From Bacillota bacterium (GTDB lineage Bacteria > Bacillota > Bacilli > Alicyclobacillales > SLC66), in contig JAJZCW010000020.1 in assembly GCA_021828865.1 (NCBI GenBank), positions 1 to 61,854 on the forward strand: a DNA stretch of 61,854 nucleotides, read 5' to 3'. Of this stretch, positions 13,164 through 52,706 are shown piece after piece. Made by a program: the position numbers and the translations under genes. The notes below the pieces were generated by a model, which was given only the letters and a program-made list of their open reading frames with translations, was not told the origin of the DNA and made no database searches. How positions within the stretch are numbered: the stretch's first letter is position 1; every line of letters begins with the position of its first letter.

Positions 13164-13757
13164 TTACTCCAGTTCCACCACATTCCGCTGACTTTTCCCG
13201 ATCAGGCGAGCGGTGGGGTAAATTGCTTTAATGGGAACAACGATCAGTGTAGCGACAATCGCCTTGATCGCATCTCCTGGCAAATAGGGATAGCATCCCA
13301 TAATCATCGCCTTTGAAAAAGGAACCTGCACTACATGCTGTAGCCAAGGAACACCAGGGAGGTACATGATTAACGACCCAAACACTTCCATGATAACAAA
13401 GGCCCATATATAGGAACCCACGCCATGTCCTTTTATTTTATCGATAAATAGTCCAATGAAAAGCGCGGAAAATGGCCAACTCCAGACAAAACCTGCAGTG
13501 GGACCAACAATTATCGCAATTCCTCCGCTACCCCCGATAAAAGGGAGACCGATGACCGCGAGTAGGATTACCAAAAGCACGCTGAAAAACCCATACCACG
13601 GCCCTAAAAAAGCGCCAGCCAACATGATCGCAAATGTGGCGAGGGTGATCGGAACCGGAGTAAATCCCAAATTGATCGTGACAAAACCAAAAACAACAAG
13701 CAATGCAGCAAATAATGCACTGAACACCAATCCGCGCACCGTAATGGAAAACTTCAT
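13164..13757 (-). CDS. bioY: Biotin transporter BioY (ECF S component)
   Basis: Substrate-binding membrane subunit for biotin uptake. The 197-residue protein has six hydrophobic helices and the family stretches FTPVPITLATFAIMLAGA and GGSGGIAIIVGPT. It needs an energising module; the divergent genes supply two ATPase domains and EcfT. An AGGAGAGAAGGGG stretch precedes ATG at 13757. It is first gene of the bioY-birA operon. Confidence 0.95.
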   Translation of the reverse strand: MKFSITVRGLVFSALFAALLVVFGFVTINLGFTPVPITLATFAIMLAGAFLGPWYGFFSVLLVILLAVIGLPFIGGSGGIAIIVGPTAGFVWSWPFSALFIGLFIDKIKGHGVGSYIWAFVIMEVFGSLIMYLPGVPWLQHVVQVPFSKAMIMGCYPYLPGDAIKAIVATLIVVPIKAIYPTARLIGKSQRNVVELE

Positions 13758-13800: not shown

Positions 13801-13832
13801 TTGTTAACCTAAATTATAATTCAAGTTAACAA
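13801..13832. promoter_or_regulatory. BirA operator in the bioY / ecfA1 divergent region
   Basis: TTGTTAAC at 13801-13808 and its reverse complement GTTAACAA at 13825-13832 are separated by exactly 16 bases, which fits the Gram-positive BirA consensus (TGTTAAC, 14-16 bases, GTTAACA). The spacer contains the palindrome AATTATAATT, so a TATAAT -10 box can be read on both strands. A bound BirA dimer would block both divergent promoters. Confidence 0.9.
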
Positions 13833-13876: not shown

Positions 13877-14692
13877 TTGAATCAAAAATGTTTGGTAGAG
13901 TTGAAAAAGATAGCGGTCGCTTTTCAGCATGCAGGACAAATACACCGTGCCCTAAACACCATAGATTTATCCATTTACGATGGGGAGTGGATTGGCATTG
14001 TCGGCAAGAACGGCAGTGGCAAAAGCACTCTGGCAAGCGTCCTCACCGGCATTTGCCCCACCTCTAAAGGATTTATGGAATATCACGATGCATCAGTACA
14101 AATGGTATTTCAAAACCCCGAGGCCCAGATTGTCGGCGAAACCATCATGGAAGAAATTTGCTTTGGTATGGAAAACCAATCGATAGACCCGATGGAAATG
14201 CGGGAAAGGGCTGAAACTGTATTGCAGCAGGTGGGATTGACAGAAGCACTCGACCAACCGATCGCCTCACTGTCAGGAGGTCAAAAGCAACTGTTGAACA
14301 TTGCCAGTTGCCTGGCGCTTCGCGCCTCCGTACTGGTATTTGATGAAGCCACCGCCATGCTCGATCCGCTCTCCAGGCAACGAGTGATGGATATCGCCGT
14401 AAAGCTGCACCGGCAGGGACAGACCATCGTATGGATCACGCAGTGGATGGAGGAACTCTCAGGGGTAGACCGCGTGGTGGCACTGGAAGAGGGAAATATC
14501 CTATTTAACGGTAGCCGCTCTGAGTTTTTTTATGATATCGCAAGTGGGTCTGCGAAAAGCCCTTGCGAAGCGATGGGATTCACACTTCCCTACAGCGTGC
14601 AGGTGGCCAAACACTTGCTGTCTATGGGTTACGAATTGAACGGATTCCCCGTTTCCGCAGCGCAACTGGCAGAGGCGGTGACCATGAGATGA
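13877..14692 (+). CDS. ecfA1: Energy-coupling factor ATPase EcfA1 (biotin uptake)
   Basis: A 271-residue ABC ATPase. Walker A is GKNGSGKST (near residues 43-51), the Q-loop is in VFQNPEAQIVG, the signature is SLSGGQKQ and Walker B is VLVFDEAT. The Q-loop QNPE/D and the extended C-terminal region are typical of ECF transporters. TTG at 13877 follows AGAGGA. The stop overlaps the next start as ATGA. Unlike the usual arrangement in Bacilli, in which one shared ECF set sits near ribosomal protein genes, this set is next to bioY and is likely dedicated to biotin. Confidence 0.9.
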   Translation: MNQKCLVELKKIAVAFQHAGQIHRALNTIDLSIYDGEWIGIVGKNGSGKSTLASVLTGICPTSKGFMEYHDASVQMVFQNPEAQIVGETIMEEICFGMENQSIDPMEMRERAETVLQQVGLTEALDQPIASLSGGQKQLLNIASCLALRASVLVFDEATAMLDPLSRQRVMDIAVKLHRQGQTIVWITQWMEELSGVDRVVALEEGNILFNGSRSEFFYDIASGSAKSPCEAMGFTLPYSVQVAKHLLSMGYELNGFPVSAAQLAEAVTMR

Positions 14693-16374
14693 GCATTCGC
14701 TTGGAACAAGTCAGTGTAAAAGTAGGAAAGGCCTCCCCCATTACGCTTCTCCATGACATTAACGGGACGATGGAAGACAGGAAAATCACGCTGATCATAG
14801 GCAAAACGGGTTCTGGAAAAACCACTCTTTTAGAAGCCATGTCTGGACTCTCACCAATCTCTTCCGGGACGATACGGTCAGTCCATCAACCCCTTTGGGT
14901 CGGCAAACGGGTGAACAACGCGCTGCGGCTTTTGACAGGCAACGTCTTTCAATACCCTGAGCACCAACTGTTTGCAAGAAAAGTGAAGGGTGAATTTGAG
15001 TATTCTTTAAAACCTTATCGGCTGCCCAAAAAAACCATTGATGAACGCGCCCGATCTTCCTTACAAGCGGTACAGCTAGATCAAGCACTGCTTTCTCAAT
15101 CTCCTCTGATACTGAGCGGTGGCCAAAAGAGGCGCGTATCGATTGCCAGCACCTTCTCCACCCATCCGGAATGGTTGTTTTTAGATGAACCCTCTGCCGG
15201 ACTTGATCCCATCGCATTGCAACAACTCATCGCGATGATCCTTGAATGGAAGCAACATAGGCGCGGCGGAATCGTCATCGCCACACACGATCTGGATGCT
15301 TTTTTGCCCATTGCAGATATGGTGTTGATGCTTAAAAATGGACGAGTATTCGCAAGCACCACTCCAAATGAGTTGATAAGCCGTATGGATCTCTTGCGAG
15401 ATGCTGAAATAGGCTTGCCGACTTCCGCTGAAGTCGCCAGGCTTTTTCACGACAAAGGGATAGCAATTCCAATTGGTTGGTTGTCACCTGAACAAATGGC
15501 GATGGCCATCGCGAGTCAGGAACCACTTGCTCCCAAAAATAACCCTGAAGAATGTACTCCTGAGTCACCTTTTAAATTGACAAAAGGTCATCATTCAGAA
15601 GGGAAAAAACCGCGATCCACTCTGGCAATGTACATCATAGACCTTGATCCGCGGGCTAAATGGGGCATGTATTTACTCTTCTCCATCGGAATTCTCGTTC
15701 AACCAACGTGGATGGGACTGTTCTATGCCACCATGGTGAGCGCTCTGGTGATTGGCTTGTCCCAGGTGCCAATTCGTGACTTGCGCCGATTTCTTATGCC
15801 ATTTTTTGTATTTATCGTCATATCCGTTGGATTTTCGGGGATAACACTCATTTATCACACTCACCGCTTTGCAGGCATTGAATTTTCCCTACCACATGCC
15901 ATGTATACTGGGAAACAAATGTATCGTATTTTGCTCATCATGGTGCTCGGCCTCTGGTTGCCTCTCACCACCACCCACCTAAAAATAAAAAAAGGAATTG
16001 AGCAATCCCTCTCTCGGATTCCCGGCATGGCAACGGTTGCCGAAGCAGTGGCGCTGAGCGCCTCGTTAACCATGAGGTTTATTCCCATGATGCTGAGGGA
16101 AACAGACCGTTTCTCCAAAGTGGCCAGAGCACGGGGCAAATCTAATGCCAAACCCGGGAGCATACGTCTACAAGACATCCGCGCGATCATGACGCCGCTA
16201 CTTTTGGCGGTCTTTCAATTGGCAGACAACCTATCCACTGCGATGGAAGTGCGGGGTTATCATCGACTGGGTTTAAAGCGCACCGCAAGCATCCAACTTA
16301 AAATGACCCGTAAAGATGCTATGGGAATCATCATCGGTGCGCTGCTCACCTTGATACTTTTTATCATCAGATGA
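14689..16374 (+). CDS. Fused ECF transporter ATPase EcfA2 and transmembrane protein EcfT
   Basis: A 561-residue fusion. Residues 1-250 are an ABC ATPase with Walker A GKTGSGKTT (38-46), signature LSGGQKRR and Walker B WLFLDEPS. A linker near 270-305 is hydrophilic. From about residue 305 to the end is EcfT, with five or so hydrophobic helices and the two coupling-motif regions ARARGKSN and VRGYHRLGLKRT. The start at 14689 overlaps the ecfA1 stop and is translationally coupled; an in-frame start 126 bases earlier lies inside ecfA1 and is unlikely. There is no stop between the two halves. Together with EcfA1 and BioY it would form a complete biotin importer. Confidence 0.9.
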   Translation: MSIRLEQVSVKVGKASPITLLHDINGTMEDRKITLIIGKTGSGKTTLLEAMSGLSPISSGTIRSVHQPLWVGKRVNNALRLLTGNVFQYPEHQLFARKVKGEFEYSLKPYRLPKKTIDERARSSLQAVQLDQALLSQSPLILSGGQKRRVSIASTFSTHPEWLFLDEPSAGLDPIALQQLIAMILEWKQHRRGGIVIATHDLDAFLPIADMVLMLKNGRVFASTTPNELISRMDLLRDAEIGLPTSAEVARLFHDKGIAIPIGWLSPEQMAMAIASQEPLAPKNNPEECTPESPFKLTKGHHSEGKKPRSTLAMYIIDLDPRAKWGMYLLFSIGILVQPTWMGLFYATMVSALVIGLSQVPIRDLRRFLMPFFVFIVISVGFSGITLIYHTHRFAGIEFSLPHAMYTGKQMYRILLIMVLGLWLPLTTTHLKIKKGIEQSLSRIPGMATVAEAVALSASLTMRFIPMMLRETDRFSKVARARGKSNAKPGSIRLQDIRAIMTPLLLAVFQLADNLSTAMEVRGYHRLGLKRTASIQLKMTRKDAMGIIIGALLTLILFIIR

Positions 16375-35592: not shown

Positions 35593-35632
35593 TATGTCCA
35601 CCTCATTTTTTATTGAAATTTTCTTTTCCTTT

Positions 35633-36220: not shown

Positions 36221-36234
36221 GCGATCACCCCCAA

Positions 36235-37077
36235 TCACGATTTCAGCGACCCGGCGACTGCTCCTGCAATCAAATATCTCTGCAAAAATACAAACGCAAT
36301 AATTAACGGAGCTGCCACAATAAATACACCTGCCGCCAATAGTGTCCAATCACTCTGATTGCTACCATAGAAGGTATATAACCCTCTGGTTAAGGGATAG
36401 AGAGAATTACTTGCTAAAAATACGACTGGACCAATTAAATCATTCCAAACATTAATCGCGACATATATCCCCACAGTAGCCAGCGCCGGACGAATTAGAG
36501 GAATTAAAATCCGCCAAATATAATGAAAATAACCGCAGCCGTCAATTGCCGCACTTTCATCTAATTCAACGGGTATCGTGCGAAAATAACCTACAAAAAT
36601 GAAAAATCCAAATGTCAACCCGTATTGTAAATGCAAAATAATATATCCCAGGCGATTGTTATACAAATCTAGTAACCGTGACTCAATAAAAAGTGGAACT
36701 AATCCTACCGGCAAGAACATGCCTGCCAAAAACAACGTGTAGATGATTTGCGAACCTCGTATATAGCGTCTTGATACTGGAAATGCAAGTAGAGCAGCAA
36801 AAAGCAAAGAAATCGCAGTGGAGAAAAAAGTGTAAATAATGGAGTTAAAAAAATACGTTCCCATCGTCGCTTGGTTCCAAGCATCTACGAAATTAAACAA
36901 TCGAATGGGATGGGGAAAAGAAACTGGATTATTGAGAAATTGCGCAGGCGTTTGCAATGCGACGGATAATAAATAGGTAAGGGGCCCAAGATACAGCAAT
37001 AAAGCAACCACAGCTGCAACGATGAAAGCCACCCAGTGCCTTTTGCGATTCAGGAACATGGTACTTGCGCTTTTCAC
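36235..37077 (-). CDS. ABC sugar transporter permease (MalG type)
   Basis: A 280-residue permease with six helices and the EAA-loop (DESAAIDGCGYFHYIWRIL...P pattern) that contacts the ATPase. It overlaps the first permease by four bases. The ATPase itself (MsmX type, usually shared) is not in the locus. Confidence 0.9.
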   Translation of the reverse strand: MKSASTMFLNRKRHWVAFIVAAVVALLLYLGPLTYLLSVALQTPAQFLNNPVSFPHPIRLFNFVDAWNQATMGTYFFNSIIYTFFSTAISLLFAALLAFPVSRRYIRGSQIIYTLFLAGMFLPVGLVPLFIESRLLDLYNNRLGYIILHLQYGLTFGFFIFVGYFRTIPVELDESAAIDGCGYFHYIWRILIPLIRPALATVGIYVAINVWNDLIGPVVFLASNSLYPLTRGLYTFYGSNQSDWTLLAAGVFIVAAPLIIAFVFLQRYLIAGAVAGSLKS

Positions 37078-37964
37078 CCCAATACCTCCTCGCGCTTTCT
37101 AAGTACTTTTTGCAAAACCAAGGCGACAATTAAAGTAATCGCAAACTCGACCATATTGATCGCTGCCGCTAGTCCCAAATTGCTCGATCCTTGAAAAGCA
37201 GTGTTAAACATATACATACCAAGTGTATTCGTATGATACAGGCCATCCGTTAACACATAAATTAAATCATAGGTATTAAGAGATCCCACCGCCGCCAGCA
37301 AGACATTGACCGTTGTGCTAGGCGCAATCATTGGAAAAGTAATATTACGAAAAATTCGCCATCCATTGGCACCATCAAGCTTTGCCGCCTCATATAATTC
37401 TTCTGGAACAGTATTCATTCCAGCCAAATAAACAATGGTTGTGAATCCTAAATTGGCCCATATTTGAACGAATATGACGAGTGGCATAGCCAGGCTGTTA
37501 GAACCGAAAAATGCAGAATTCCCACCCCAGAGAGAGAGAAAATTAGCTGCTGGCCCCCCTGATGGATTGAATATAAGCGCCCAAGTCAATCCTATAACAG
37601 TCACGCCAAGTGATGCAGGCATAAAAACTAATGAACGAAAAACTGCTCTTCCGGGGTATTTTTTGGTGAACAAATGCGCAAGTCCTAGTGCAAAAAGATT
37701 TTGAAACACCGTTACACTCACAGCAAAAACCAGCGTATCTCGTATAGATCCTGTTAATCCTGCAGAATCCAATATAAAGGCTTGCACATAGTTGGTTAGC
37801 CCTATGAATTGAGCCGGTATGCCTGGGATGCCTGAATAATTGGTTAAAGAAATCACTGCGGTCGCAACTGAAGGTACAATACCAAACAAAAAGTAAACCA
37901 GTAATCCCGGTGCCATTCCTATGCGCATTTGTATACGATCGCGACCACGGTAAATTGATGACAC
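37074..37964 (-). CDS. ABC sugar transporter permease (MalF type)
   Basis: A 296-residue permease with six helices and the EAA-loop YEAAKLDGANGWRIF. GTG at 37964 has GGTGGGGG upstream; a GTG seven codons earlier is in frame but lacks a site. It works with the other permease and the binding protein to import an oligosaccharide or amino sugar. Confidence 0.9.
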   Translation of the reverse strand: MSSIYRGRDRIQMRIGMAPGLLVYFLFGIVPSVATAVISLTNYSGIPGIPAQFIGLTNYVQAFILDSAGLTGSIRDTLVFAVSVTVFQNLFALGLAHLFTKKYPGRAVFRSLVFMPASLGVTVIGLTWALIFNPSGGPAANFLSLWGGNSAFFGSNSLAMPLVIFVQIWANLGFTTIVYLAGMNTVPEELYEAAKLDGANGWRIFRNITFPMIAPSTTVNVLLAAVGSLNTYDLIYVLTDGLYHTNTLGMYMFNTAFQGSSNLGLAAAINMVEFAITLIVALVLQKVLRKREEVLG

Positions 37965-38004
37965 GATTGTCCCCCACCCCAGCACTCTTTTTGAAACAAT
38001 GAGC

Positions 38005-38036
38005 GAAAAAAGGGTGTGCTCAAGCTGGACACACCC
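38005..38036 (-). terminator. Attenuating terminator between binding protein and permeases
   Basis: On the minus strand, arms GGGTGTG and CACACCC with an 11-base loop are followed by six Ts. Placed between the binding-protein gene and the permeases, it would allow much more binding protein to be made than permease, a common arrangement. Confidence 0.8.
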
Positions 38037-38051
38037 TCATGCCCATCAACA

Positions 38052-39359
38052 TTACTTCTGAATCTGATTCCAAGCGTTTTGATACATTTGCGCCACTTGT
38101 TGTGGTGTGTACTTTCCTTGATACATTTCTAGTTGCAATTGCCACCAGTTTTTCGGTTGCACATAATAAGATCCACTACCAGGTAACGCTGGGAAAATGG
38201 TGGCTAATGAAACTCCTTTGCCAAACCAACTTCCCAACGTGCGAGAAGATACACTGTTATAAGTACCCACATTTCTGCTTGGGGAAATGCCTGTGGCATT
38301 TACGTATTGTGCATAAATCTTTGGCGAAGCAAAGAAATTCAACCATTTTAATGCAGCTGCTTTGTGAGGACTATTGTTTAAGACAACAAAGGTCAAATCA
38401 GGTTGCAGCAAAGATTGGTTCAGCTTAGGATTATTGGATCCTGGAAATGGGAAGTACCCCATATTAATATGAGGATTGGCTTGTACAACAGATGGTAAAT
38501 CCCAAGAACCATCCAACAACATAGCCGCTTTTCCATTGGCAAAGGCACCCGGCATTTGTTGCCACGGAACTCCTGTAAAGTTTGGTTCTAAATATTTCAT
38601 CACTTCTTTTTCACGCTGCATGACGGTGATAAAGGCAGGATCTGTCCACTTTGTTTTTCCCGTCCAAAGAGCAGTATTAATATTGCCCACCTTAGGTAAC
38701 CAGACTTCCTGCATCAATGGATAAGTGATAAACTGCAGATACAAAGGTCCCACATTTTGTAATCCATCAAAAAATGGAACAACGTGATGAGAGCTTAGCA
38801 CTTTAGCGATTTGCATAAACTGATTGAATGTCTTGGGAGGAGTCAGATGGTATTTGGCGAAAATCGCTTTATTGTAAAACACACCATCCTGGTAGACACC
38901 GGAAACCAAGCCATAATACTTCCCTTTATACTGATCATTAGCGAGAACAGAAGAATTAAAGTCTTTTATCCAAGGCTGCCCGTTAAGCGGTGTAAATACA
39001 TTGTTAACTGCCCACAATTGGGTCGGGCTTAAACTATTTTGATTCGTAGTCGTCGGCAAAGGCTGAATGGGGAACGTCCCCATAATATCTGCGGAGCCAC
39101 CTTGAACCGCTGTTTGTTGCATGGTAGCATATCCACCTGTTACATCAGCGGTAGTCTGATAATTCACTGTATAGCCAGGATTAGCTTTTTCGAATTCTGT
39201 ATTGATTTTTTTGAGCACTGCCACCGCAGGTGGATTGACCCATGTAATGAGGTTGACAACATTCTGTGAAGATGCAAGTGCAGGTGCGGTTATTGTTAAT
39301 CCTGTTGCCATTGTCAAAGCAACCGCAATGGCTCCCGTGATTTTTGTGTTTTTTTTCAA
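38052..39359 (-). CDS. ABC transporter sugar-binding protein (secreted form)
   Basis: A 435-residue family 1 solute-binding protein: signal sequence of 29 residues ending in ITAPALASS, then NLITWVNPPAVAVL and TEFEKANPGYTVN, typical of sugar binders. The signal lacks a lipobox cysteine, so cleavage by signal peptidase I is predicted. That is unusual for a Gram-positive cell, where binding proteins are normally lipid anchored. TTG at 39359 has AAGGGGG upstream. Confidence 0.9.
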   Translation of the reverse strand: MKKNTKITGAIAVALTMATGLTITAPALASSQNVVNLITWVNPPAVAVLKKINTEFEKANPGYTVNYQTTADVTGGYATMQQTAVQGGSADIMGTFPIQPLPTTTNQNSLSPTQLWAVNNVFTPLNGQPWIKDFNSSVLANDQYKGKYYGLVSGVYQDGVFYNKAIFAKYHLTPPKTFNQFMQIAKVLSSHHVVPFFDGLQNVGPLYLQFITYPLMQEVWLPKVGNINTALWTGKTKWTDPAFITVMQREKEVMKYLEPNFTGVPWQQMPGAFANGKAAMLLDGSWDLPSVVQANPHINMGYFPFPGSNNPKLNQSLLQPDLTFVVLNNSPHKAAALKWLNFFASPKIYAQYVNATGISPSRNVGTYNSVSSRTLGSWFGKGVSLATIFPALPGSGSYYVQPKNWWQLQLEMYQGKYTPQQVAQMYQNAWNQIQK

Positions 39360-39464
39360 TCAAGTTACCCCCTTATTTTCGTTCAATATGAAAACAACAT
39401 TCCAACAGGATCTTCTAATAACGGTAACCCGCCATCACCCCCTTACCATTAGTAATCTGAATTT

Positions 39465-40694
39465 TCACTGTTGGCCTTCTTGAATATCAAAATGATAGTT
39501 AGTTTCAAGAAGTGATTCAGAGGATCTAAGAAACCCGTTTTTCTCCAAAATAATAGCTACTATCCCTGCAACAGCGGCAAATTCTCTTAATTCTCCGGTT
39601 AAAACCAATGGTTTATCGTGTGGAAAATTAATTAGCCTACGATTAATATTTTTTTGAAGAGCTCGCATAAATTCATCGCATTGATCAAAAATCCCTTCTA
39701 AAATAATAATGCTCGGATCCGTAGTAGATATCAGAGAAGCGATCCCAACCGCCAGTATCTCAGACACTTGTTCCAGAATCTCAGCAACGTCTCCTTTTTG
39801 ATAAATGGAATTTAAGTAACTGGCTCGATCAACAATGGTTTCAAAATCATCTTCTGACAATTCTTTTGGTAGATGATCTTTTAGCAAAGAAATAACTTCA
39901 TGCCAACTCACATAAGCTTCCAAACAACCGATACTTCCACATCTGCATTTTTTCCCATTTAATTCAACAGGCATATGGCCAATCTCACCGGCATATCCTC
40001 GACTTCCAAGTAATATGTGCCTATCAACAATGATCCCAGCCCCCACACCTGTTCCGACATGCACATAACAAAAAGAATTCACCCCTCTCCCTCTTCCAAA
40101 ATAGGCTTCCCCTATCGCAGCGGCATTCGTATCGTTTTCTATAAAAGTAGGAATCTTATGATTATTCATTATATCTCCAGTAAATTTCAAGGATTTCCAA
40201 GGGAAGTTTGCTATATTTACTATTTCACCTTCTGAGCGATTTAATATACCAGGGGTGGCTAATCCAACACCAATAACCGTCGATTCATCATGCCCATCCA
40301 TCAGTTCACTAATCACAGATTGTAAAACTGATCTAATATCATCTGATAATTCAAATTTTTTTTCTGATATTTTTTTTATCTCAGCTGCTATATTGGTTCG
40401 AACACCTAAAACCTTATTATCTACGATAGACAAACCAATTACCGAACGAGAATCCCATTGTATATCTAATAGCATAGGGCGCCTTCCCATAGGCGAAACA
40501 ACCTTTCCCACTTCTTGAACCAAATTTTCTGATTGTAATTCAATAATGGCGTTTCCAACTGTAGTGGGACTTAGCGTTGTCTGCCGGGAAATTTCAATTT
40601 TTGACATGGGGCCATGATTTAATAGGGTGTCGAGCACAAGTCGCCGATTCATTTGTTGAACGTACTGCAAATCCCCTGTCGGTCTGTGTCTCAC
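39465..40694 (-). CDS. ROK-family transcriptional regulator
   Basis: A 409-residue NagC/XylR-type repressor: N-terminal winged helix-turn-helix (SKIEISRQTTLSPTTVGNAI) and a ROK sugar-sensing domain with GTGVGAGIIV and zinc motif CRCGSIGCLEAY. GTG at 40694 follows AAAGGGG. Likely repressor of the surrounding locus through the two matching sites at 40730 and 43757; inducer is probably an amino-sugar phosphate. Confidence 0.92.
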   Translation of the reverse strand: MRHRPTGDLQYVQQMNRRLVLDTLLNHGPMSKIEISRQTTLSPTTVGNAIIELQSENLVQEVGKVVSPMGRRPMLLDIQWDSRSVIGLSIVDNKVLGVRTNIAAEIKKISEKKFELSDDIRSVLQSVISELMDGHDESTVIGVGLATPGILNRSEGEIVNIANFPWKSLKFTGDIMNNHKIPTFIENDTNAAAIGEAYFGRGRGVNSFCYVHVGTGVGAGIIVDRHILLGSRGYAGEIGHMPVELNGKKCRCGSIGCLEAYVSWHEVISLLKDHLPKELSEDDFETIVDRASYLNSIYQKGDVAEILEQVSEILAVGIASLISTTDPSIIILEGIFDQCDEFMRALQKNINRRLINFPHDKPLVLTGELREFAAVAGIVAIILEKNGFLRSSESLLETNYHFDIQEGQQ

Positions 40695-40729
40695 AGTGAA
40701 ACCCCTTTCAAAAAAATTAAACGAAAAAC

Positions 40730-40752
40730 ATTATTTTTTCCAATAGAATAAT
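40730..40752. promoter_or_regulatory. Operator-like inverted repeat before the ROK gene
   Basis: ATTATT (40730-40735) and AATAAT (40747-40752) are separated by 11 bases, and the core TTTTTTCCAATAGAATA is shared with the site at 43757. Position between kinase gene and ROK start suggests autoregulation. Confidence 0.7.
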
Positions 40753-40818
40753 TATTTAGCTACATAATAATCATGACTCTTTTACTTTGTCAATCATTTT
40801 ATTAATCCCTGTACTTTC

Positions 40819-41811
40819 CTAAGAAATATTCAGCAACTCAGCTTTATTAGCCAGTTGTTCCCATAATTTAATGACCTCTCTTGACGAGTAGTCTTCTGCG
40901 TAGCGCATTCTTTGTTCGTATTGAATTGCCCGAAGAACAGCCCCCGCAGCAGGACTTAACGTCAGTACAAGAAAAATTGAGTCAGGCATTTTTTGCTGTA
41001 ATAAGTCTCTCATGTCTGTTGTTTTCGTAAATATACTTCCTGACAATACCACTTTCTTATTGAGGTTATGATTGATTTGGATGTACACGGATTGTATTAA
41101 TCGTATGTATTGATCTACCGCTTTATTAATAATTTGATTGGAAACTAAATCATGGGGAGAAGACTCAATGACAATGCGTGCAAATGATGCAATCGATTGG
41201 ATCGGATTGGACGCGCCATAAATAGCAGGCACAATATCAAGAACCTGCTCAATTTGGTAAAATGATTGGACTTTTTGCCACAATATTGTAGCTGTCCCCC
41301 TGTGTTCCGCGCTTTGAATAGCGGCTATGATTCCAGATCTTCCGATATCAAATCCACTGCCTTCGTCTCCTACCAGATTACCGTAACCACCGGCCCGAAA
41401 GATTTCTCCTGTTTCTGTTTCTCCTAAACATACAGAACCTGTCCCCGCAATCAAAACAACTCCTGGTGTTCCAAACGTACCTGCCGTGAGAGCAGCTAAG
41501 GCATCACCGGACACTTCTATCAATGCATTCGTGAATATTGAAGAAAACTTTTCTTTCATTTTTTCAATATGTTCACTACGAGACAGTCCAGCTAAACAAA
41601 ATGATAATCCAAGTACTTCATTATCACTGGCATTAATTGACTTCATTAAAAAATGAATTAGGTAATCCATCGTCTCTAATGCCGCATCCCAAGGCACAGT
41701 GTTGGGGTTGCTTGCCTTTCCAATACAAGTGATTCCAATACGGCGCTCCATATCCATCAAAAAAACCTGTGTCTTAGACCCACCGCCATCTATCCCTACA
41801 TAAAGGCCCAA
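40819..41811 (-). CDS. BadF/BcrA-type sugar kinase (N-acetylglucosamine kinase-like)
   Basis: A 330-residue ASKHA-fold kinase with phosphate-1 motif YVGIDGGGSKT at the start, GVVLIAGTGSVCLG as phosphate-2, and GGYGNLVGDEGSGFDIG, the region typical of bacterial and human GlcNAc kinase relatives. It should phosphorylate the imported amino sugar before NagA. TTG at 41811 follows GGGAGTGAT. Confidence 0.87.
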   Translation of the reverse strand: MGLYVGIDGGGSKTQVFLMDMERRIGITCIGKASNPNTVPWDAALETMDYLIHFLMKSINASDNEVLGLSFCLAGLSRSEHIEKMKEKFSSIFTNALIEVSGDALAALTAGTFGTPGVVLIAGTGSVCLGETETGEIFRAGGYGNLVGDEGSGFDIGRSGIIAAIQSAEHRGTATILWQKVQSFYQIEQVLDIVPAIYGASNPIQSIASFARIVIESSPHDLVSNQIINKAVDQYIRLIQSVYIQINHNLNKKVVLSGSIFTKTTDMRDLLQQKMPDSIFLVLTLSPAAGAVLRAIQYEQRMRYAEDYSSREVIKLWEQLANKAELLNIS

Positions 41812-41830
41812 GCTGATCACTCCCAAATTG

Positions 41831-42898
41831 TTATATGTCAGTTAATGCAGAAGCTATAATATTATGCGATTTTTCTCGTAACTCTTTCATGATGAGGTTG
41901 TCTCTTCCATAATGAACTCTATTGGTAAGTAAAATAGTCCACAATTTTGATGAAGGATCCATGGTTATACTCGTACCTGTAAATCCTGTGTGTCCCACTG
42001 TTGTTGGAGGCCAAAGATCACCGCTATGATCAAAACTATCTCTTCGATACGTCCATCCTAGCCCGCGGCATCCATTTAAACGATCAGTATGACATTGACA
42101 TGCGATGTGACGAACAGATTCAGAAAGAATGGATATACTCGGAGTCAACCACATTTTTACATAACGTGTTAAATCAGAGATTGGCGCAAAAAGTCCGGCA
42201 TGCCCCGAAAATCCATCCATTTGATAGGCATTTTCATCATGAACCACTCCCACTTTCACACCAAACCCCGAACTTTCTTCCGTTGCGGCAATCCGATCGC
42301 GTAAGTTTTTATCAGGATTGTAATTAGTCTCATTCATTGATAGTGGCTGAAAAATATACTCTTTACTAAATTCAGCAATCGTTTTACTGGTAATTATTCG
42401 AACAATTTCACCAAGCAAAATAAATCCCAAGTCACTATAAACCACCCTTGTTCCCGGAGAACACTCCAATTCTTCTTTTTTCACCATACTGATTATTTCA
42501 TCTCTGGAATGAGAATGTTGATAATATGCTCGATGTGATGGTAAGCCTGAGGAGTGAGTGAGCAAGTGTTGCACAGTCACAACTGATTTTGGATCCGATC
42601 GGAAATTAGCAATAAACTTAGCAACCGGGTCATGCAAACGAATCTCTCCATAGTCAATTAACCACAAAATACTCGGTAAAGTAGCAACTACTTTTGTAAG
42701 TGAAGCCAGATCGAATATGGTGTCATCTCTCATTAATCGTGTAACGCCATTTTTATTTTCTGCGTACCCACCAAAGCTTTGGTGAATAATTTCGTTTCCT
42801 AAACCAACCGCTATAGAATAACCAGGCAAACGACCATCATCTACTTCTTTTCTTAATAATTCATCCAATCTGTAAAGCTTTACTCTATTAATATTCAT
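41831..42898 (-). CDS. Serine hydrolase of the class C beta-lactamase family (YbbE-like)
   Basis: A 355-residue penicillin-binding-protein-like hydrolase with catalytic FDLASLTKV (SxxK), VYSDLGFILLGE (Tyr motif) and VGHTGFTGT (HTG in place of KTG). No signal peptide is seen, so it is probably cytoplasmic. In B. subtilis a related gene, ybbE, sits in the muropeptide recycling operon; by analogy this one may act on a cell-wall fragment. Confidence 0.85.
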   Translation of the reverse strand: MNINRVKLYRLDELLRKEVDDGRLPGYSIAVGLGNEIIHQSFGGYAENKNGVTRLMRDDTIFDLASLTKVVATLPSILWLIDYGEIRLHDPVAKFIANFRSDPKSVVTVQHLLTHSSGLPSHRAYYQHSHSRDEIISMVKKEELECSPGTRVVYSDLGFILLGEIVRIITSKTIAEFSKEYIFQPLSMNETNYNPDKNLRDRIAATEESSGFGVKVGVVHDENAYQMDGFSGHAGLFAPISDLTRYVKMWLTPSISILSESVRHIACQCHTDRLNGCRGLGWTYRRDSFDHSGDLWPPTTVGHTGFTGTSITMDPSSKLWTILLTNRVHYGRDNLIMKELREKSHNIIASALTDI

Positions 42899-42966
42899 GA
42901 CTAAGTCAACCTTTCACTTTAATGAGGGTATTTTTTAAATAACCTTTTTCGTTTTCGATGTAAGTT

Positions 42967-43737
42967 CTACTTAATTTTCAAATGATTCGCATCTAAATAA
43001 TCGGTGTTTTTTAACAAATCAGTTGCACCATCCTGATCCAGAATGACCATTACATCTGGATGAAATTGTAAAATACTAGCTGGGATAGTGGTACTAACAT
43101 TTCCAATCACCACTTGTTCAATGATTTTTGACTTTTCAGTGCCAAAAGCCATCAGTACTATTTTCTTTGCTTGCAATATCGATTGGATTCCCATTGTAAT
43201 TGCTTGTTTTGGTACCTGATCTTCACTATCGAAAAAACGGGCGTTGCTCTTTATGGTTTCGTGTCGGAGTTCCACCACATGAGTTTTTGCAATTAGGGTA
43301 TCTGAGGGTTCATTAAACCCAATATGCCCATTGATACCAATACCTAGTATCTGTAAATCAATTGGATAATTTTTTAAGATTTCATCATATCGAAGGCATT
43401 CTTCCACTAAATTAGCAGAGGCACCATTTGGAACAAAAGTGCAAGAAGACGATAAGTTAGTTTTTGAAAAAAGATTGCTTTTCATGAAATGGAAATAACT
43501 TTGGGGATGCTCCGCGCTAAGCCCTACATATTCGTCCAAATTGATAGTGGTTACATGCGATAAATCAAGACCACACTCATATAAACGCACCAACGACTCA
43601 TAAAATGGAACGGGAGTTTGCCCTGTCGCTAAACCAAGTACTGGGTTGCGTTTATTCATAATCACGAATTCTGCTAATGAGGCCACATATATGCCCGCAT
43701 CGTGAGGAGTGTTAAAAACACGGATGGTAAATGTCAA
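42967..43737 (-). CDS. nagB: Glucosamine-6-phosphate deaminase
   Basis: Converts GlcN-6-P to fructose-6-P and ammonia. The 256-residue product has LGLATGQTPVPFY, catalytic NLDEYVG and GINGHIGFNEP. TTG at 43737 follows GGAGTG. It is the first gene of the locus, behind an operator-like repeat. Length is normal for the short Gram-positive type without the allosteric C-terminus. Confidence 0.94.
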   Translation of the reverse strand: MTFTIRVFNTPHDAGIYVASLAEFVIMNKRNPVLGLATGQTPVPFYESLVRLYECGLDLSHVTTINLDEYVGLSAEHPQSYFHFMKSNLFSKTNLSSSCTFVPNGASANLVEECLRYDEILKNYPIDLQILGIGINGHIGFNEPSDTLIAKTHVVELRHETIKSNARFFDSEDQVPKQAITMGIQSILQAKKIVLMAFGTEKSKIIEQVVIGNVSTTIPASILQFHPDVMVILDQDGATDLLKNTDYLDANHLKIK

Positions 43738-47992: not shown

Positions 47993-48487
47993 TTGGAACC
48001 AATGGATACGCTTACACTTGCGGTGCAAGATTATTATCCTGATGATTTTTCCTATTGCTACGGATGCGGGCGATTAAATGATCATGGCTTGCAATTAAAA
48101 ACCAGATGGGACGGCGAAGAAACCGTCACCGAATATGTTCCCCGCCCGGAACATTTGGCCATTCCTGGGTTTGTCTACGGCGGACTCATCGCTTCGCTGA
48201 TTGATTGCCACAGCACAGGTTCTGCATCACTCGCGCTTCATCGCAGAGATGGTCACGAACTTGGCAATGGTGTAAATGTACCCCGTTGTGTGACGGCATC
48301 GTTAAAGGTTGATTTCCTCAAGCCCACTCCCCACGGAGAACCCATTACTGTCAGAGGCAAAATCGTGGAAGTAGGACGGAAAAAAGCAGTGATCCACAGC
48401 GAGTTAATTGTTGCAGGGGAAGTATGTGTACGCGGTGAGGTGGTGGCAGTCATCGCGCCGGATTCCATGTTAAACGCCGCCAGATAG
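47993..48487 (+). CDS. PaaI-type hotdog thioesterase
   Basis: A 164-residue hotdog protein with cysteine-containing YCYGCGRLNDHGL head, GGLIASLIDCHSTGSAS (helix of the active site) and VDFLKPTP. It should hydrolyse an acyl-CoA. TTG at 47993 has GGATGGTGTG upstream; ATG at 48002 is possible. The stop lies in the loop of a terminator. It is divergent from the iron permease gene. Confidence 0.83.
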   Translation: MEPMDTLTLAVQDYYPDDFSYCYGCGRLNDHGLQLKTRWDGEETVTEYVPRPEHLAIPGFVYGGLIASLIDCHSTGSASLALHRRDGHELGNGVNVPRCVTASLKVDFLKPTPHGEPITVRGKIVEVGRKKAVIHSELIVAGEVCVRGEVVAVIAPDSMLNAAR

Positions 48488-48519: not shown

Positions 48520-48632
48520 TTAGAGAGAAAAGCCTTCTACCATCAATTGCAATTTTTCTGCCAATTGTTCGAACGAATGAGCGGACGCCGCGATCTCTTC
48601 CATGCTCGCCAGTTGTCCTTCCGCTTCCTTGA
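48520..48632 (-). pseudogene. 3' fragment of a chemoreceptor gene
   Basis: About 36 codons read KEAEGQLASMEEIAASAHS then FEQLAEKLQLMVEGFSL and a stop, matching the end of methyl-accepting chemotaxis proteins. No upstream receptor sequence is present; the acyl-CoA ligase gene starts its 3' end ten bases away. A remnant of a former gene. Confidence 0.7.
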
Positions 48633-48641
48633 AAATATAGA

Positions 48642-50042
48642 TTAATCAAGTTTACTTTTTTGGAGAATTTCATGTAGTAAAGCTGATTTCAGCACCTTTC
48701 CTGTAGCATTACGGGGCAAGGATTCTATCTGCCACCAAAATCTTGGGCGTTTGTACCCGCTCAGATGCGTTTTGATGTACTCATCAATCTCCTTTGCTGA
48801 ACCGTGGCGATCTACCATCACGATAAAAGCCACAGGCACTTCCCCAAGGCGTTCATCCGGCATCGCCAAGACCGCCACTTCTTTGATGTTCGGATGGCGC
48901 TCCATTACAGTTTCCATTTCACGAGGGTATATATTGACGCCGCCCACCACCATTTTGTCATGCTGACGACCCGTCACATACAAATACCCTTCATCATCTA
49001 TATAGCCCCAATCGCTCGTCGCGAGAAATCCATCTTCCCGCAACAATTTTTCGAAATGTAAGGTGGCATCTGGCCCATCGTAGCCAGAAAACCCCATGGT
49101 GCTTCGAACTTGTATTTCATCATCAATGCAACGAACTTCAGCCTTATAAAAAGGTTTACCGACCGATTCCGGTTTCCGAAGTTGGTCGCTTGGGGACAAA
49201 AGTGAGACAAAGCCTACTTCTGAAGTCCCGTAATATTCATAAAGTGCAGCGTTAGGAAAGACTGCCATTAATTTTTCCTTGGTGGTAACCGCCATTTTGT
49301 CCCCCGCAGTGATCATCGTGATTGTATGCTGATTGGGTTTCTCCCCTTGCGCATTCACCACATCCCGATACATGGTAGGCACCATGTATAGCGTATTCAC
49401 GTCAGATTCTGTCAAACGTTGACACACTCGCCTCGGGTCAAATGTCTCGTGAACCTCCACCGTAGCTCCGATAAAAAGCCCGTGAAGTCCCGCAATCAAA
49501 GATCCGGAATAATACAGCGGGCCGGGAAGCAGCAAAACTGATGCATCATCCATACCAAATTCCTTACTCATGGCAAAAAAACTATCCACCCACGACTTGT
49601 GTGTCCGGCGAATTCCCTTAGGGATGCCAGTTGTCCCTGAGGTATATCCGATGTAAAACAAGTCATCTTCACCATCGTAAGCATCCTTATGATCAGGCTT
49701 CTTCTTCCAAGAAAGCACCCCAGCTTTCTCCTCTATGATCAGCACCGGGCGAAGCGCCTTGAGCATCTGACGCCTTTCTGAGTCAATAAGTCTCGGATTG
49801 ATCGGGGAAGCCACCAATCCAGCATGAATGATACCGAGAAACCACACCAAATAATCCAGGCGATTAGGCAAACAAAGCGCCACGCGCTCGCCGGGCATCA
49901 ATCCTCGTTGAAAGATCGAATCCTTTATTTCCCCTATTTGCCTAGCCAGTTCCGCATACGTGATCGCGCTTCCTTCGTTTCGCAGCGCAATCTGTTGGGA
50001 TCGGAGGGACGCTTGATAGAGAACTTCTTCATCGATTCTCAA
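48642..50042 (-). CDS. yhfT: AMP-forming acyl-CoA ligase (YhfT-like)
   Basis: A 466-residue ANL-superfamily ligase. The P-loop YIGYTSGTTGIPKG, YEYYGTSEVG, SDWGYIDDEGYLYVTGR and the catalytic lysine region PRNATGKVLKSAL are complete. It should activate a carboxylic acid as CoA thioester. TTG at 50042 overlaps the thiolase stop as TTGA; an in-frame ATG at 50063 exists inside the thiolase. Third gene of an operon with a BirA operator, like yhfT in B. subtilis. Confidence 0.88.
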   Translation of the reverse strand: MRIDEEVLYQASLRSQQIALRNEGSAITYAELARQIGEIKDSIFQRGLMPGERVALCLPNRLDYLVWFLGIIHAGLVASPINPRLIDSERRQMLKALRPVLIIEEKAGVLSWKKKPDHKDAYDGEDDLFYIGYTSGTTGIPKGIRRTHKSWVDSFFAMSKEFGMDDASVLLLPGPLYYSGSLIAGLHGLFIGATVEVHETFDPRRVCQRLTESDVNTLYMVPTMYRDVVNAQGEKPNQHTITMITAGDKMAVTTKEKLMAVFPNAALYEYYGTSEVGFVSLLSPSDQLRKPESVGKPFYKAEVRCIDDEIQVRSTMGFSGYDGPDATLHFEKLLREDGFLATSDWGYIDDEGYLYVTGRQHDKMVVGGVNIYPREMETVMERHPNIKEVAVLAMPDERLGEVPVAFIVMVDRHGSAKEIDEYIKTHLSGYKRPRFWWQIESLPRNATGKVLKSALLHEILQKSKLD

Positions 50043-51205
50043 TAGCAGACAACCCTTTCCCATACGGAAGCAATTCCAAGCCCTCCGCCAACGCCTAACG
50101 TGGCTAGACCATACTTGCCCTTTCTCCGCTGCAACTCATAAAAAAGACGTGTCAGCAAAATAGCACCGGACGCACCATACGGATGGCCGAGTGCAATCGC
50201 ACCGCCATTTACATTCAATCGATCCATGGGCATCGAAAGTTCCCTCACTGAAGCGATGACTTGGGAAGCAAACGCTTCATTTAATTCAATCAAGTCTATC
50301 TCATCCATCGCAAGCTGAGTCCGAGTCAACAATCGTCGTACAGCAGGTATCGGACCAATCCCCAGATAATTGGGGTCGACACCTACCAATTCCGAATCCA
50401 TGTATCGTAAAACGGGTCGCAATCCCAGCCTTTTGCAGGCATCCCCTGAGGCAATCATCACCACCGCCGCGCCGTCGTTAATCCCGCAGGCATTACCCGC
50501 GGTCACCGTGCCATCAGGGATAAATACAGGCGGAAGCTTGGACAATTTTCCTAGGCTGGTATCCGATCTTGGTCCTTCGTCCTGATCAAACCATGTGCCA
50601 TCCCGTAGACAAAAAGGAGCTATTTCAGGAACCATCTTACTTTCTTTGATCGCATGGACCGCTTTCTGATGGCTGAGTAGCGAAAAGGCATCCTGATCTT
50701 CTCGTGACACCCGGTATTGCTTTGCCACGTTTTCTGCCGCGACTCCCATGTCAGGGTCCCCGATCTCATATGGAGCAAACCTTGCCCGCTGGAAGAACGC
50801 TGGTCCTATAGCCCCGTACAAATTCAGCGGTTTTTGCACCTTCCAGGGCGCACGACTCGAGCTTTCCACACCGCCCGCAATCACCAAATCCCGCTGACCC
50901 ATGATCACTTCATAAGCGGCTATATGAATCGCCTGCAGGCCCGATCCACACTGCAAATCAATCGCAACTCCCGGTGTGGTGTCTGGAAACCCAGCCGATA
51001 ATGCTGATAACCTTCCCATGTTGCCACCTGGGCCTACCACATTGCCAAGGATGATTTCCTCGACTTCTTCTTTTCTAATACCCATCTCATTTACCACCGC
51101 GCGAAGCACCGCACTAGCAAGATCCTGCGGCTCGACCTCTCTTAGCTCACCGCCCAATTTCCCAATCGCGGTACGCTTAGCAGCGACGACAAACGCTTCT
51201 CGCAC
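50039..51205 (-). CDS. yhfS: Thiolase-family protein (YhfS-like) with Gly in place of the second Cys
   Basis: A 388-residue thiolase. The nucleophile Cys86 (DLQCGSGLQA) and His341 (GGAIALGHPYGASG) and NEAFA are intact, but the last motif, normally ATLCIGGGxG, reads ATLGVGGGLG, so Gly371 replaces the acid-base cysteine. Thus normal thiolysis or condensation by acyl exchange may be altered. ATG at 51205 has AGGAGGAAAA upstream. It is the middle gene of the operon and overlaps the ligase. Confidence 0.88.
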   Translation of the reverse strand: MREAFVVAAKRTAIGKLGGELREVEPQDLASAVLRAVVNEMGIRKEEVEEIILGNVVGPGGNMGRLSALSAGFPDTTPGVAIDLQCGSGLQAIHIAAYEVIMGQRDLVIAGGVESSSRAPWKVQKPLNLYGAIGPAFFQRARFAPYEIGDPDMGVAAENVAKQYRVSREDQDAFSLLSHQKAVHAIKESKMVPEIAPFCLRDGTWFDQDEGPRSDTSLGKLSKLPPVFIPDGTVTAGNACGINDGAAVVMIASGDACKRLGLRPVLRYMDSELVGVDPNYLGIGPIPAVRRLLTRTQLAMDEIDLIELNEAFASQVIASVRELSMPMDRLNVNGGAIALGHPYGASGAILLTRLFYELQRRKGKYGLATLGVGGGLGIASVWERVVCY

Positions 51206-51217
51206 TTTTTTTTCCTC

Positions 51218-52174
51218 CTAACGCATCATCCCGTCTATCTGCGCTTGAAACCTTTCTGCGGTGGCCACCATCTCGTCAAACAGTTCTTTCACACTCAGTA
51301 CGGATTGAATCAATCCAACCGATTGGCCTGCCCATGCATACCCATTTTGAAAATCGCCGTCATACACTGCTTTTTTATTCCGTTCACCAGAGATCAGGTG
51401 ATAAAACTCTTCCTTAGTCAAACCTTCCGTTTCCGCCTCTAGAATGTGCACTGCCCATTCGCCGTTAATGACCCGTCCCGGTGCGCCAATGGAGCGCTTG
51501 ATCACCTTTGTATCAAGCTCAGATCCCTTCACCAGTCGTGCTTTATATTCGTCGCTGGCGACACTTTCCTTCGTGGCAACAAACCTCGTCCCCATCTCTA
51601 TTCCTTCCGCGCCAAGCGCAAGAGCTGCAAGCAACCCTCTACCATCAGCAATGCCACCGCTTGCAATAACCGGAATGGCAACTGCATCCACAACACGTGG
51701 AATGAGAACGATCGTGCCTGTATCATCACGTCCAATGTGACCTCCCCCTTCCTGGCCTACGGCAATGACCGCATCCGCACCGAGCGATTCTGCTTTTTGC
51801 GCCTGCCTCACGGTACTCACCAGAATTAGTTTTTTAATCGGGTGGCCTTCCAAACGCTTCATCGTTTTTTCCGGATTTCCGCCAGTTAGAGTGACTGCGG
51901 AGACTTTTTTGTCAATCACCAGATCCACCATATCATCAACGGAATGGTGTTGTCCGATAGCAATATTGACCGCAAAAGGCTTGTCAGTCTGCTCGCGGAC
52001 GCGATCGATTTCCTTCGCCAATTCTTCCGTAGAGGCGAGTGAGGTGGCCGTAATTTGCCCCAGCCCGCCAGCACTCGATACTGCCGCAGCAAGGTTGGCA
52101 AATGCCAGATGAGCTAGTCCCCCTTGGATTATCGGAACACTGATTCCTAGTAGTTCTGTCATTCGCGTTTTCAT
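51218..52174 (-). CDS. Nitronate monooxygenase / FabK-like flavoprotein
   Basis: A 318-residue FMN protein of the 2-nitropropane dioxygenase family: IIQGGLAHLAFANLAAAVSSAG at the N-terminus, VGQEGGGHIG (catalytic-histidine loop), PVIASGGIADGRG and LGAEGIEMGTRFV for phosphate binding. FabK-type enoyl-ACP reductases share this fold, so it may reduce an enoyl thioester. ATG at 52174 has AGGAGG upstream. First gene of the BirA-operator operon. Confidence 0.88.
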   Translation of the reverse strand: MKTRMTELLGISVPIIQGGLAHLAFANLAAAVSSAGGLGQITATSLASTEELAKEIDRVREQTDKPFAVNIAIGQHHSVDDMVDLVIDKKVSAVTLTGGNPEKTMKRLEGHPIKKLILVSTVRQAQKAESLGADAVIAVGQEGGGHIGRDDTGTIVLIPRVVDAVAIPVIASGGIADGRGLLAALALGAEGIEMGTRFVATKESVASDEYKARLVKGSELDTKVIKRSIGAPGRVINGEWAVHILEAETEGLTKEEFYHLISGERNKKAVYDGDFQNGYAWAGQSVGLIQSVLSVKELFDEMVATAERFQAQIDGMMR

Positions 52175-52189
52175 CTATAAGCCTCCTAT

Positions 52190-52221
52190 TTGTTAACCTA
52201 TTATTATAATCCGGTTAACAA
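52190..52221 (-). promoter_or_regulatory. BirA operator of the FabK-like / thiolase / ligase operon
   Basis: TTGTTAAC (52190-52197) and GTTAACAA (52214-52221) with a 16-base spacer, the same arms and spacing as at 13801. On the minus strand TATAAT lies in the spacer and the ribosome site of the nitronate monooxygenase gene follows directly. Confidence 0.88.
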
Positions 52222-52259: not shown

Positions 52260-52637
52260 TTATTTTCGCACAAAAAAAGTGCCCGTTGCTCTGGCGACAA
52301 GCAGATTTTCCTCGTTTACCACCTGGCAATCCGCATACATGAGCGTACGCCCTGTTTTGACTATTGTCGCCACCGCCGTAAGACTTTTCCCCTTTGCCCC
52401 CTGCAAAAAAGTCGTATGTAAATCAATGGTCACTGCATTTTGAACACCTGCCTCATCTGCATCCATTAAATTAGACATGGCCACATCGACCAGCGCCGAA
52501 ATGATGCCACCGTGTACTATCCCTACACTGTTGATGTGAAGCGGCTGCAAAGGCAGCGTTACATGGACTTCATTGGGACTCACACGCTCATAAACAAATC
52601 CCAAAAATTCATCAAACGGTTGTTTAATAAAACTCAT
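52260..52637 (-). CDS. PaaI-type hotdog thioesterase
   Basis: A 125-residue hotdog protein with HINSVGIVHGGIISALVDVAM (active-site helix) and VTIDLHTTFLQGA. It is a candidate acyl-CoA thioesterase. ATG at 52637 has AGAGGAT upstream. It lies just upstream of the BirA-operator operon on the same strand but has its own start region. Confidence 0.85.
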   Translation of the reverse strand: MSFIKQPFDEFLGFVYERVSPNEVHVTLPLQPLHINSVGIVHGGIISALVDVAMSNLMDADEAGVQNAVTIDLHTTFLQGAKGKSLTAVATIVKTGRTLMYADCQVVNEENLLVARATGTFFVRK

Positions 52638-52706
52638 CAAAATCCTCTCCCGATCATCATGTAGGTATGATCTATTCTACCGATTAACAGGGCAACAAAG
52701 TCAAGC

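What the first reader, a model, noticed from the sequence alone, without database searches (positions are those of the whole stretch)
48642..52221. A second, near-identical BirA operator places a FabK-like / thiolase / acyl-CoA ligase operon in the biotin regulon
Arms and 16-base spacing equal those at bioY, and a TATAAT lies within the spacer. The order resembles yhfS-yhfT of B. subtilis, which are reported BirA targets with bioY, but here a nitronate monooxygenase/FabK-like gene leads the operon. It may form a pathway toward a pimelate-type precursor or salvage of a biotin-related acid; the biochemical role of these genes is unknown.
Basis: partly seen in the sequence, partly recalled or inferred. 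Interest (0 to 1): 0.75.

Follow-up and report, generated by a model that had tools for sequence, protein, structure and literature searches.

The report
Biotin-shortage acyl salvage operon
A bacterium that appears unable to make biotin carries three fat-metabolism genes behind the same DNA switch that sits at its biotin importer; the switch likely turns them on when biotin runs low, where they would recycle acids into membrane lipid building blocks rather than make biotin, and one of the three is a thiolase look-alike that has lost one of the usual active-site residues.

Summary
Window 52190-52221 is TTGTTAAC-N16-GTTAACAA, one of only two exact sites in the genome assembly; the other lies between bioY-birA and the ECF genes. 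It sits 15 bases upstream of a FabK-like gene, a YhfS-type thiolase and a YhfT-type ligase. In a sister genome the operator arms are unchanged (18 of 18 bases) while 6 of 14 spacer bases differ. The trio occurs in 9 of 61 genomes, own included: behind the operator in an ECF operon (G004), behind operator-bioY (G037, G054), behind a weaker site in G046; four trio loci show no site. The pimelate idea fails here: BioB is not found in this genome, nor in one-contig G037, which keeps operator-bioY-trio; BioD and BioW are not found either, but they say less. New: all 198 YhfS-type thiolases examined have Gly where thiolases carry the acid/base Cys, while 13 of 13 readable paralogues keep Cys. So this is a BirA-regulon yhfST variant with an added reductase, probably an acyl-salvage module for biotin shortage. 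Regulation is well supported by sequence; the chemistry is inferred.

The parts
52190..52221 (.). BirA-type operator TTGTTAACC-N14-GGTTAACAA (perfect 9-base arms)
   Evidence: arms 18/18 conserved and spacer 8/14 conserved in G003; score above all 200 shuffles (the weight matrix was trained on exact sites, this one included)
52203..52208 (-). TATAAT inside the operator spacer, possible -10
   Evidence: sequence; no promoter found here by the scan; not kept in G003
51218..52174 (-). FabK-like / nitronate-monooxygenase-family flavin reductase, first gene of the operon
   Evidence: TIGR03151 FabK 295 bits, cut-off 453; PF03060; best PDB match FabK 7l00; GGGH motif with His146 invariant in 13
50039..51205 (-). 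YhfS-type thiolase-fold protein; Cys86, His341 and NEAF kept, acid/base Cys replaced by Gly371
48642..50063 (-). YhfT-type AMP-forming acyl ligase (probable start TTG at 50042)
   Evidence: NF005797 325 bits, cut-off 518; PF00501/PF13193; C-terminal NATGK with the lysine kept
13801..13832 (.). second BirA-type operator, between bioY-birA (-) and the ECF genes (+)
13164..13757 (-). bioY, biotin ECF S component
   Evidence: PF02632 120.6 bits
12154..13146 (-). birA with HTH domain: biotin ligase and predicted repressor
   Evidence: TIGR00121 206 bits, PF08279 55 bits, both over cut-off
13877..16374 (+). ECF ATPase genes and T component, divergent from bioY
   Evidence: for the first ATPase (TIGR04520 224 bits, below its 315 cut-off); the rest read by eye from the translation

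Best explanation
A FabK-like reductase gene, a thiolase-fold gene and an acyl-ligase gene lie in one direction behind a palindrome whose arms equal those at bioY, so they are likely repressed by BirA when biotin is plentiful and would be switched on in biotin shortage, where they probably salvage free acids into acyl thioesters instead of making a biotin precursor. Inferred steps: (1) BirA carrying biotinyl-AMP binds 52190-52221 and blocks transcription; when biotin is short, apo-carrier of acetyl-CoA carboxylase builds up and the site opens together with bioY and the ECF genes. (2) The YhfT-type ligase activates an acid, likely a fatty or 3-hydroxy fatty acid, as acyl-AMP. (3) The YhfS-type protein takes the acyl group on Cys86 and passes it to ACP or CoA; lacking the base of Claisen thiolases, it would act as an acyltransferase. 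(4) The FabK-like flavin enzyme would reduce the enoyl thioester to the saturated one, with a FabG-like reductase joining in G004 and G008. The outcome would be acyl chains for lipids without malonyl-CoA, whose making needs biotin. Shown here: gene order, operators, conservation, BioB not found and the Cys-to-Gly change. Not shown: any activity or substrate.
For: Operator. Linkage to biotin uptake genes in other genera: G004 operator-ecf-trio-FabG-like, G037 and G054 operator-bioY-trio (FabG-like). Trio or pair occurs as often without BioB (6 of 35 genomes) as with it (5 of 26), Fisher p = 1.0, so the module does not follow biotin synthesis. Thiolase: 198 of 198 listed relatives have Gly at the acid/base position with the nucleophile QCG and GHP kept; 13 of 13 readable paralogues have Cys. 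PMC3406046 (passages) gives the Cys378 proton-abstraction role. PMC10988940, a review (passages), says that with B. subtilis YhfT only acyl adenylates and no CoA thioesters are seen, and that acyl-AMP is passed to ACP. PMC6391492 (passages) shows BirA binding and biotin-dependent repression at S. aureus yhfS-yhfT.
Against: Four of nine trio loci (G005, G020, G029, G058) and the ligase-thiolase pair in G051 show no operator by the same scan. Sister genome G003 keeps operator and FabK-like gene but has lost thiolase and ligase from this place, so the reductase may work alone. FabK-like relatives in other Bacillales stand without thiolase or operator next door, so its basic role need not be tied to biotin. 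G046 thiolase looks frameshifted. No substrate evidence; the YhfT biochemistry is second-hand, from a remote relative, and another review (PMC7960918, passages) names only LcfA and YhfL as characterised in vitro. Another residue could replace the lost Cys. Whether this genome has the usual fatty acid salvage genes was not searched.
Confidence: 0.4

Rival explanations
1. Biotin vitamer repair: the ligase activates a side-chain-shortened biotin such as bisnorbiotin, the thiolase-fold protein and the reductases rebuild the chain, giving biotin from a degraded form taken up by BioY.
For: Co-operonic with bioY (G037, G054) and with ECF genes (G004); present in genomes where BioB is not found, where vitamer salvage would be most useful; reductase pair FabK-like plus FabG-like fits chain rebuilding.
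Against: Chain rebuilding needs Claisen condensation, but the acid/base Cys is Gly in 198 of 198. The one search run gave 8 papers, none on bacterial bisnorbiotin re-elongation by title (listing only). No dehydratase was recognised in the cluster.
Confidence: 0.2
2. The operon makes a pimelate-type precursor for biotin synthesis.
For: Regulated with biotin genes; a ligase plus thiolase plus enoyl reductase could in principle build or trim a C7 diacid; five of the eleven trio or pair genomes do have BioB.
Against: BioB is not found over cut-off in this genome, its three same-genus relatives, or G037, which is one contig, 99% complete and has operator-bioY-trio. BioD and BioW are not found in G000 or G037 either, but this is weak: 11 of 26 BioB-positive genomes also show no BioD over cut-off, and BioW is found in only 3 of 61 (G016, G044, G057, none with the trio).
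Confidence: 0.08
3. The FabK-like gene is a nitronate monooxygenase or quinone reductase for detoxification that happens to lie at the head of a yhfST operon; the operon is a loose bundle, not a pathway.
For: It scores below the FabK cut-off; its family profile matches PA1024 (2gjl, 282 bits) nearly as well as FabK 7l00 (309 bits) and has two extra residues after GGGHIG that 7l00 and 3bo9 lack; it stands without thiolase in other Bacillales and is kept without thiolase and ligase in G003.
Against: Repeated linkage with thiolase and ligase in nine genomes and with bioY or ECF genes in three of them.
Confidence: 0.2
4. The palindrome is not a BirA site, or is a non-functional relic.
For: Four trio loci lack it; no consensus promoter found.
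Against: Only two such sites in the 3-Mb assembly, the other at bioY-birA; arms fixed while spacer drifts, Fisher p = 0.003; 21 of 61 genomes, own included, carry such sites, mostly near bioY, ECF, bioB or bioD genes, while the backwards control matches in one genome, G045.
Confidence: 0.05

Closest known systems
yhfS-yhfT operon of the Staphylococcus aureus and Bacillus subtilis BirA regulons
   Same: Thiolase-type and acyl-ligase-type genes controlled by BirA together with bioY (PMC6391492, PMC7235819, PMC6323116, passages).
   Different: Here a FabK-like reductase leads, the thiolase precedes the ligase, bioY is not in the operon, and BioB is not found in the host genome. Own ligase scores 325 bits against a 518-bit cut-off for the YhfT-type model.
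FabK flavin enoyl-ACP reductase
   Same: Best scoring family and PDB match; GGH histidine kept.
   Different: 295 bits against a 453-bit cut-off; two extra residues after GGGHIG; same-genus genomes G001 and G003 have FabI.
Biosynthetic/degradative thiolases (TIGR01930)
   Different: Acid/base Cys is Gly; GHP followed by Tyr or Phe; shorter in the loop region.
Thiolase-like protein TLP1 of Mycobacterium smegmatis
   Same: A thiolase fold with altered catalytic motifs, CXG included (PMC3406046, passages).
   Different: TLP1 lost nucleophile, NEAF and GHP too; the YhfS-type proteins keep those and differ at the CXG Cys.

Membership tests
BirA regulon | Exact TTGTTAAC-N16-GTTAACAA operator upstream | tested here: met
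BirA regulon | BirA with DNA-binding domain in the genome | tested here: met
   PF08279 and TIGR00121 over cut-off, 12154-13146
BirA regulon | Operator kept with the operon in relatives | tested here: inconclusive
   Present in G004, G037, G054, weaker in G046, and in G003 with the FabK-like gene alone; not found in G005, G020, G029, G058
BirA regulon | Biotin-dependent binding and repression | not testable with these tools
   needs EMSA or expression data
YhfS/YhfT pair | Scores over the curated cut-off of NF005212 / NF005797 | tested here: not met
   415 of 498 and 325 of 518 bits; best narrow models, but none of 61 genomes passes either; homologues, not filed as strict equivalogs
YhfS-type thiolase clade | Gly at the CXG position with nucleophile Cys and GHP[YF] (signature defined here) | tested here: met
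Canonical Claisen thiolase | Acid/base Cys of the CXG motif | tested here: not met
   Gly371
FabK | Score over TIGR03151 cut-off | tested here: not met
   295 of 453 bits
Pimelate/biotin synthesis pathway | BioB present | tested here: not met
   no match over cut-off in G000 (94% complete), G001, G002, G003 or one-contig G037
Pimelate/biotin synthesis pathway | BioD present | tested here: inconclusive
   not found in G000 or G037, but the model also misses 11 of 26 BioB-positive genomes at its cut-off
Pimelate/biotin synthesis pathway | BioW | tested here: not met
   found in only 3 of 61 genomes, so its absence is common here
Pimelate/biotin synthesis pathway | BioI, BioF, BioA, BioC/BioH, BioZ | not tested

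The most novel reading that the evidence does not exclude
YhfT, YhfS and the FabK-like enzyme form a biotin-sparing route: acyl-AMP from the ligase is loaded by a Claisen-dead thiolase onto ACP and reduced, so that BirA, by sensing biotin, switches the cell from malonyl-CoA-dependent fatty acid synthesis to acid salvage; this would explain the yhfS-yhfT arm of the BirA regulon.
Probability: 0.25. Interest if true: 0.78.

Novelty: new variant of a known kind. Interest (0 to 1): 0.57.

Why it matters
yhfS-yhfT is a published BirA target; the passages I read tie YhfT to surfactin but do not say why biotin status should control the pair. Three results narrow it. Six of the eleven trio or pair genomes show no BioB, so the module cannot be just a precursor supply. 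An enoyl-reductase-type gene has joined it in Alicyclobacillus relatives. And its thiolase lacks the base of Claisen chemistry in all 198 relatives examined, which points to acyl transfer. That makes the function testable with purified proteins and with B. subtilis deletion strains.

Tried and rejected
FabK-like protein as the only enoyl-ACP reductase of this organism: rejected. A FabI probe found FabI in 32 of 61 genomes at 55-66% identity, among them same-genus G001 and G003, but its best match in G000 is only 25% identical, E 1.7e-14. None of the 19 PF13561 proteins of G000 clearly looks like FabI; five have a Y-x6-K somewhere and L211 has one without Y-x3-K, which I set aside by eye. However a 7.5-kb stretch of G003 around FabI has no match at all in the G000 assembly, so an assembly gap is the simpler reading. 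The tool warns that an empty answer without a positive control shows nothing; elsewhere the two genomes align at about 89-93%. FabV and FabL were not searched.

Trio as a marker of biotin auxotrophy: rejected, 6 of 35 BioB-negative against 5 of 26 BioB-positive genomes, p = 1.0.

Wide spread of the trio: not seen. Among 80 FabK-like loci of the named genome collection (best 80 of 497), 4 have thiolase and ligase next door, all Alicyclobacillus (A. pomorum, A. contaminans, sp. ALC3, A. herbarius); L111 (G003) has the operator alone; L134 has a remote ligase-family gene (28%) 1.3 kb upstream. L120, L126 and L189 end soon after the gene, so their downstream side is untested. Weak 3-mismatch sites in L167, L178 and L186 lie over 600 bases away and were taken as chance.

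Structure: thiolase model good, but no coordinates were at hand in the Python box, so I could not see what fills the place of the lost Cys. The FabK-like model (pLDDT 79.8, weak at residues 141-157) was not searched or used.

Rodionov 2002 on the BirA regulon is not held; I saw it only as a reference. Literature searches behind 'not found in print'. In their listings I saw no paper that pairs FabK or nitronate monooxygenase with a BirA regulon; each listed one paper, by its title on another topic, which I did not open.
Full report
1. The observation. The 32-base palindrome TTGTTAACC-N14-GGTTAACAA lies at 52190-52221, and a second with the same 8-base arms and 16-base spacing lies at 13801-13832 between bioY (-) and the ECF genes (+). 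No shuffle of 100 gives any such site. In the 3.08-Mb assembly these are the only two exact sites, and the backwards control finds none. At two mismatches one more site appears, against four for the control. So the predicted regulon of this genome is these two places. birA itself (12154-13146) follows bioY and carries the DNA-binding domain.

2. The genes. 51218-52174 (-) is a FabK-like protein: TIGR03151 at 295 bits, below its 453-bit cut-off, and PF03060; the best solved relatives are FabK 7l00, then T. maritima and PA1024 entries (organism of the second recalled). 50039-51205 (-) is a thiolase, with NF005212 (PRK06690) as best narrow model; 48642-50063 (-) is an AMP-forming ligase, with NF005797 (PRK07638) as best. 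In the 14 control genomes each model passes its cut-off in exactly one, which the output does not name; that this one is B. subtilis, and that the models are YhfS and YhfT, is my inference. The ligase probably starts at TTG 50042, since several relatives have MRIADG or MRIEDD there, giving a 4-base overlap with the thiolase stop. A TATAAT is in the operator spacer, but the scan finds no promoter there.

3. Conservation of the operator. There, 0 of 18 arm bases differ and 6 of 14 spacer bases differ (Fisher p = 0.003). The TATAAT is lost, a GATAAT being left 3 bases on. G003 has no thiolase or ligase in this place: 17 thiolase codons remain, then an intact chemotaxis-receptor-like gene (receptor by eye). 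The window in turn keeps only the last 37 codons of that receptor gene behind the ligase (48526-48636, 92% identity). So the common ancestor most likely had all four genes, and each lineage deleted a different part. G003 is only 65% complete; its best thiolase to the YhfS-type model scores 287 bits (trio thiolases 303 to 436) and its best ligase 236.

4. Relatives. FabK-like genes of at least 55% identity were found in 22 of 61 genomes, own included, three of the 23 places being partial or disrupted. I looked at the surroundings of all 23. The full trio is in nine genomes: G000, G004, G005, G020, G029, G037, G046, G054, G058. In G004 the operator lies between bioY-birA and an ECF-FabK-like-thiolase-ligase-FabG-like gene row. 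In G037 and G054 (Alicyclobacillus sp. ALC3, L114) the operator heads bioY-FabK-like-thiolase-ligase. G008 has thiolase-ligase and the same kind of short-chain reductase at a contig end; G051 has a ligase-thiolase pair of the closer YhfT/YhfS type. A weight-matrix scan of 22 upstream stretches (two start points for G058) found a site above all 200 mononucleotide shuffles in six: G000, G003, G004, G054, G037, G046. The matrix was trained on 27 exact sites, which include those of G000, G003 and G004 but not the other three. It found none in trio loci G005, G020, G029, G058, none in the G051 pair and none in ten solo FabK-like genes; the partial or disrupted genes of G020:C5, G032 and G051 were not tested. 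Of the 80 named loci (which overlap the 61 genomes), 4 have the trio, one is G003, and in the other 75, mostly Bacillaceae and other Bacillales, no thiolase (30% identity or more) lies within the fetched flanks; one, L134, has a 28% ligase-family gene 1.3 kb upstream, and three loci end soon after the gene.

5. No BioB. BioB is over its cut-off in 26 of 61 genomes and not in G000-G003. BioD is over the cut-off in 15 of 61 and not in G000; since all 15 are BioB-positive and 11 BioB-positive genomes have no such match, absence of BioD is weak evidence. BioW is found in three of 61, none with the trio, and not in G000; this too is common here. G000 is 94% complete, so a gap is possible, but G037 is one contig (3,617,228 bases), 99% complete, and shows no BioB, BioD or BioW while keeping operator-bioY-trio. 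The thiolase listing names a contig of the same length as Alicyclobacillus cycloheptanicus (P0007). Trio or pair presence does not depend on BioB: 5 of 26 with, 6 of 35 without. BioI, BioF, BioA, BioC, BioH and BioZ were not searched.

7. How it may work. The parts fit acid activation, acyl transfer and enoyl reduction. BirA reads biotin status against its own carrier protein (established knowledge, not from a call), so the genes would open when acetyl-CoA carboxylase is short of biotin and malonyl-CoA is scarce. Salvaging acids into acyl thioesters is then useful, and the review PMC10988940 (passages) describes YhfT as forming acyl adenylates that go to ACP, while PMC7960918 (passages) names only LcfA and YhfL as characterised in vitro. 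This is the reading I commit to, at about 0.4 for the whole; I hold BirA control itself at about 0.85. Repair of biotin vitamers remains the best rival pathway, though chain rebuilding sits badly with the lost base. On rechecking BioD and BioW I raised the pimelate rival from 0.06 to 0.08.

8. Novelty. The regulon link of yhfS-yhfT is known. The reductase at its head, its tie to bioY and ECF gene rows in Alicyclobacillus relatives, the presence in genomes without a BioB match, and the uniform Cys-to-Gly change are what is new to me; I found none of these in the listings and passages of the ten searches named under Tried and rejected.

Noticed in passing
window 48526-48636 (-); L057 3665-5608: Relic of the last 37 codons of a chemotaxis-receptor-like gene behind the ligase; the gene is intact in G003, which in turn lost thiolase and ligase. 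Reciprocal deletions at one locus.
   Followed up: yes
window 52260-52640 (-) and 47993-48487 (+): Two hotdog thioesterase genes flank the operon on both sides, outside the operator's reach, and both are kept in G003 (95% and 98%).
   Followed up: partly
window 12154-16374: One BirA-type operator lies between two diverging units, bioY-birA and an ECF module; bioY and ECF genes diverge around such a site in several relatives too, e.g. L060, L063, L075.
   Followed up: partly
L222 5930-6700: FabI of sister genome G003; a 7.5-kb stretch around it has no match in the window's own assembly.
   Followed up: partly
L085 6274-7275: Thiolase of G046 (A. pomorum) appears frameshifted towards its end while reductase and ligase frames look intact.
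   Followed up: no
61 genomes: Eleven genomes have BioB over cut-off but no BioD over cut-off; either the BioD model misses them or another enzyme does the step.
   Followed up: no
window 33709-43737: By eye, an amino-sugar uptake and recycling cluster (nagA, SIS domain, ABC sugar transporter, ROK regulator, kinase, nagB).
   Followed up: no
L065 8133; G044:C2:24278: Relative G044 carries the same BirA-type site with the same spacer on two contigs, with a BioB gene about 1.7 kb from each.
   Followed up: no
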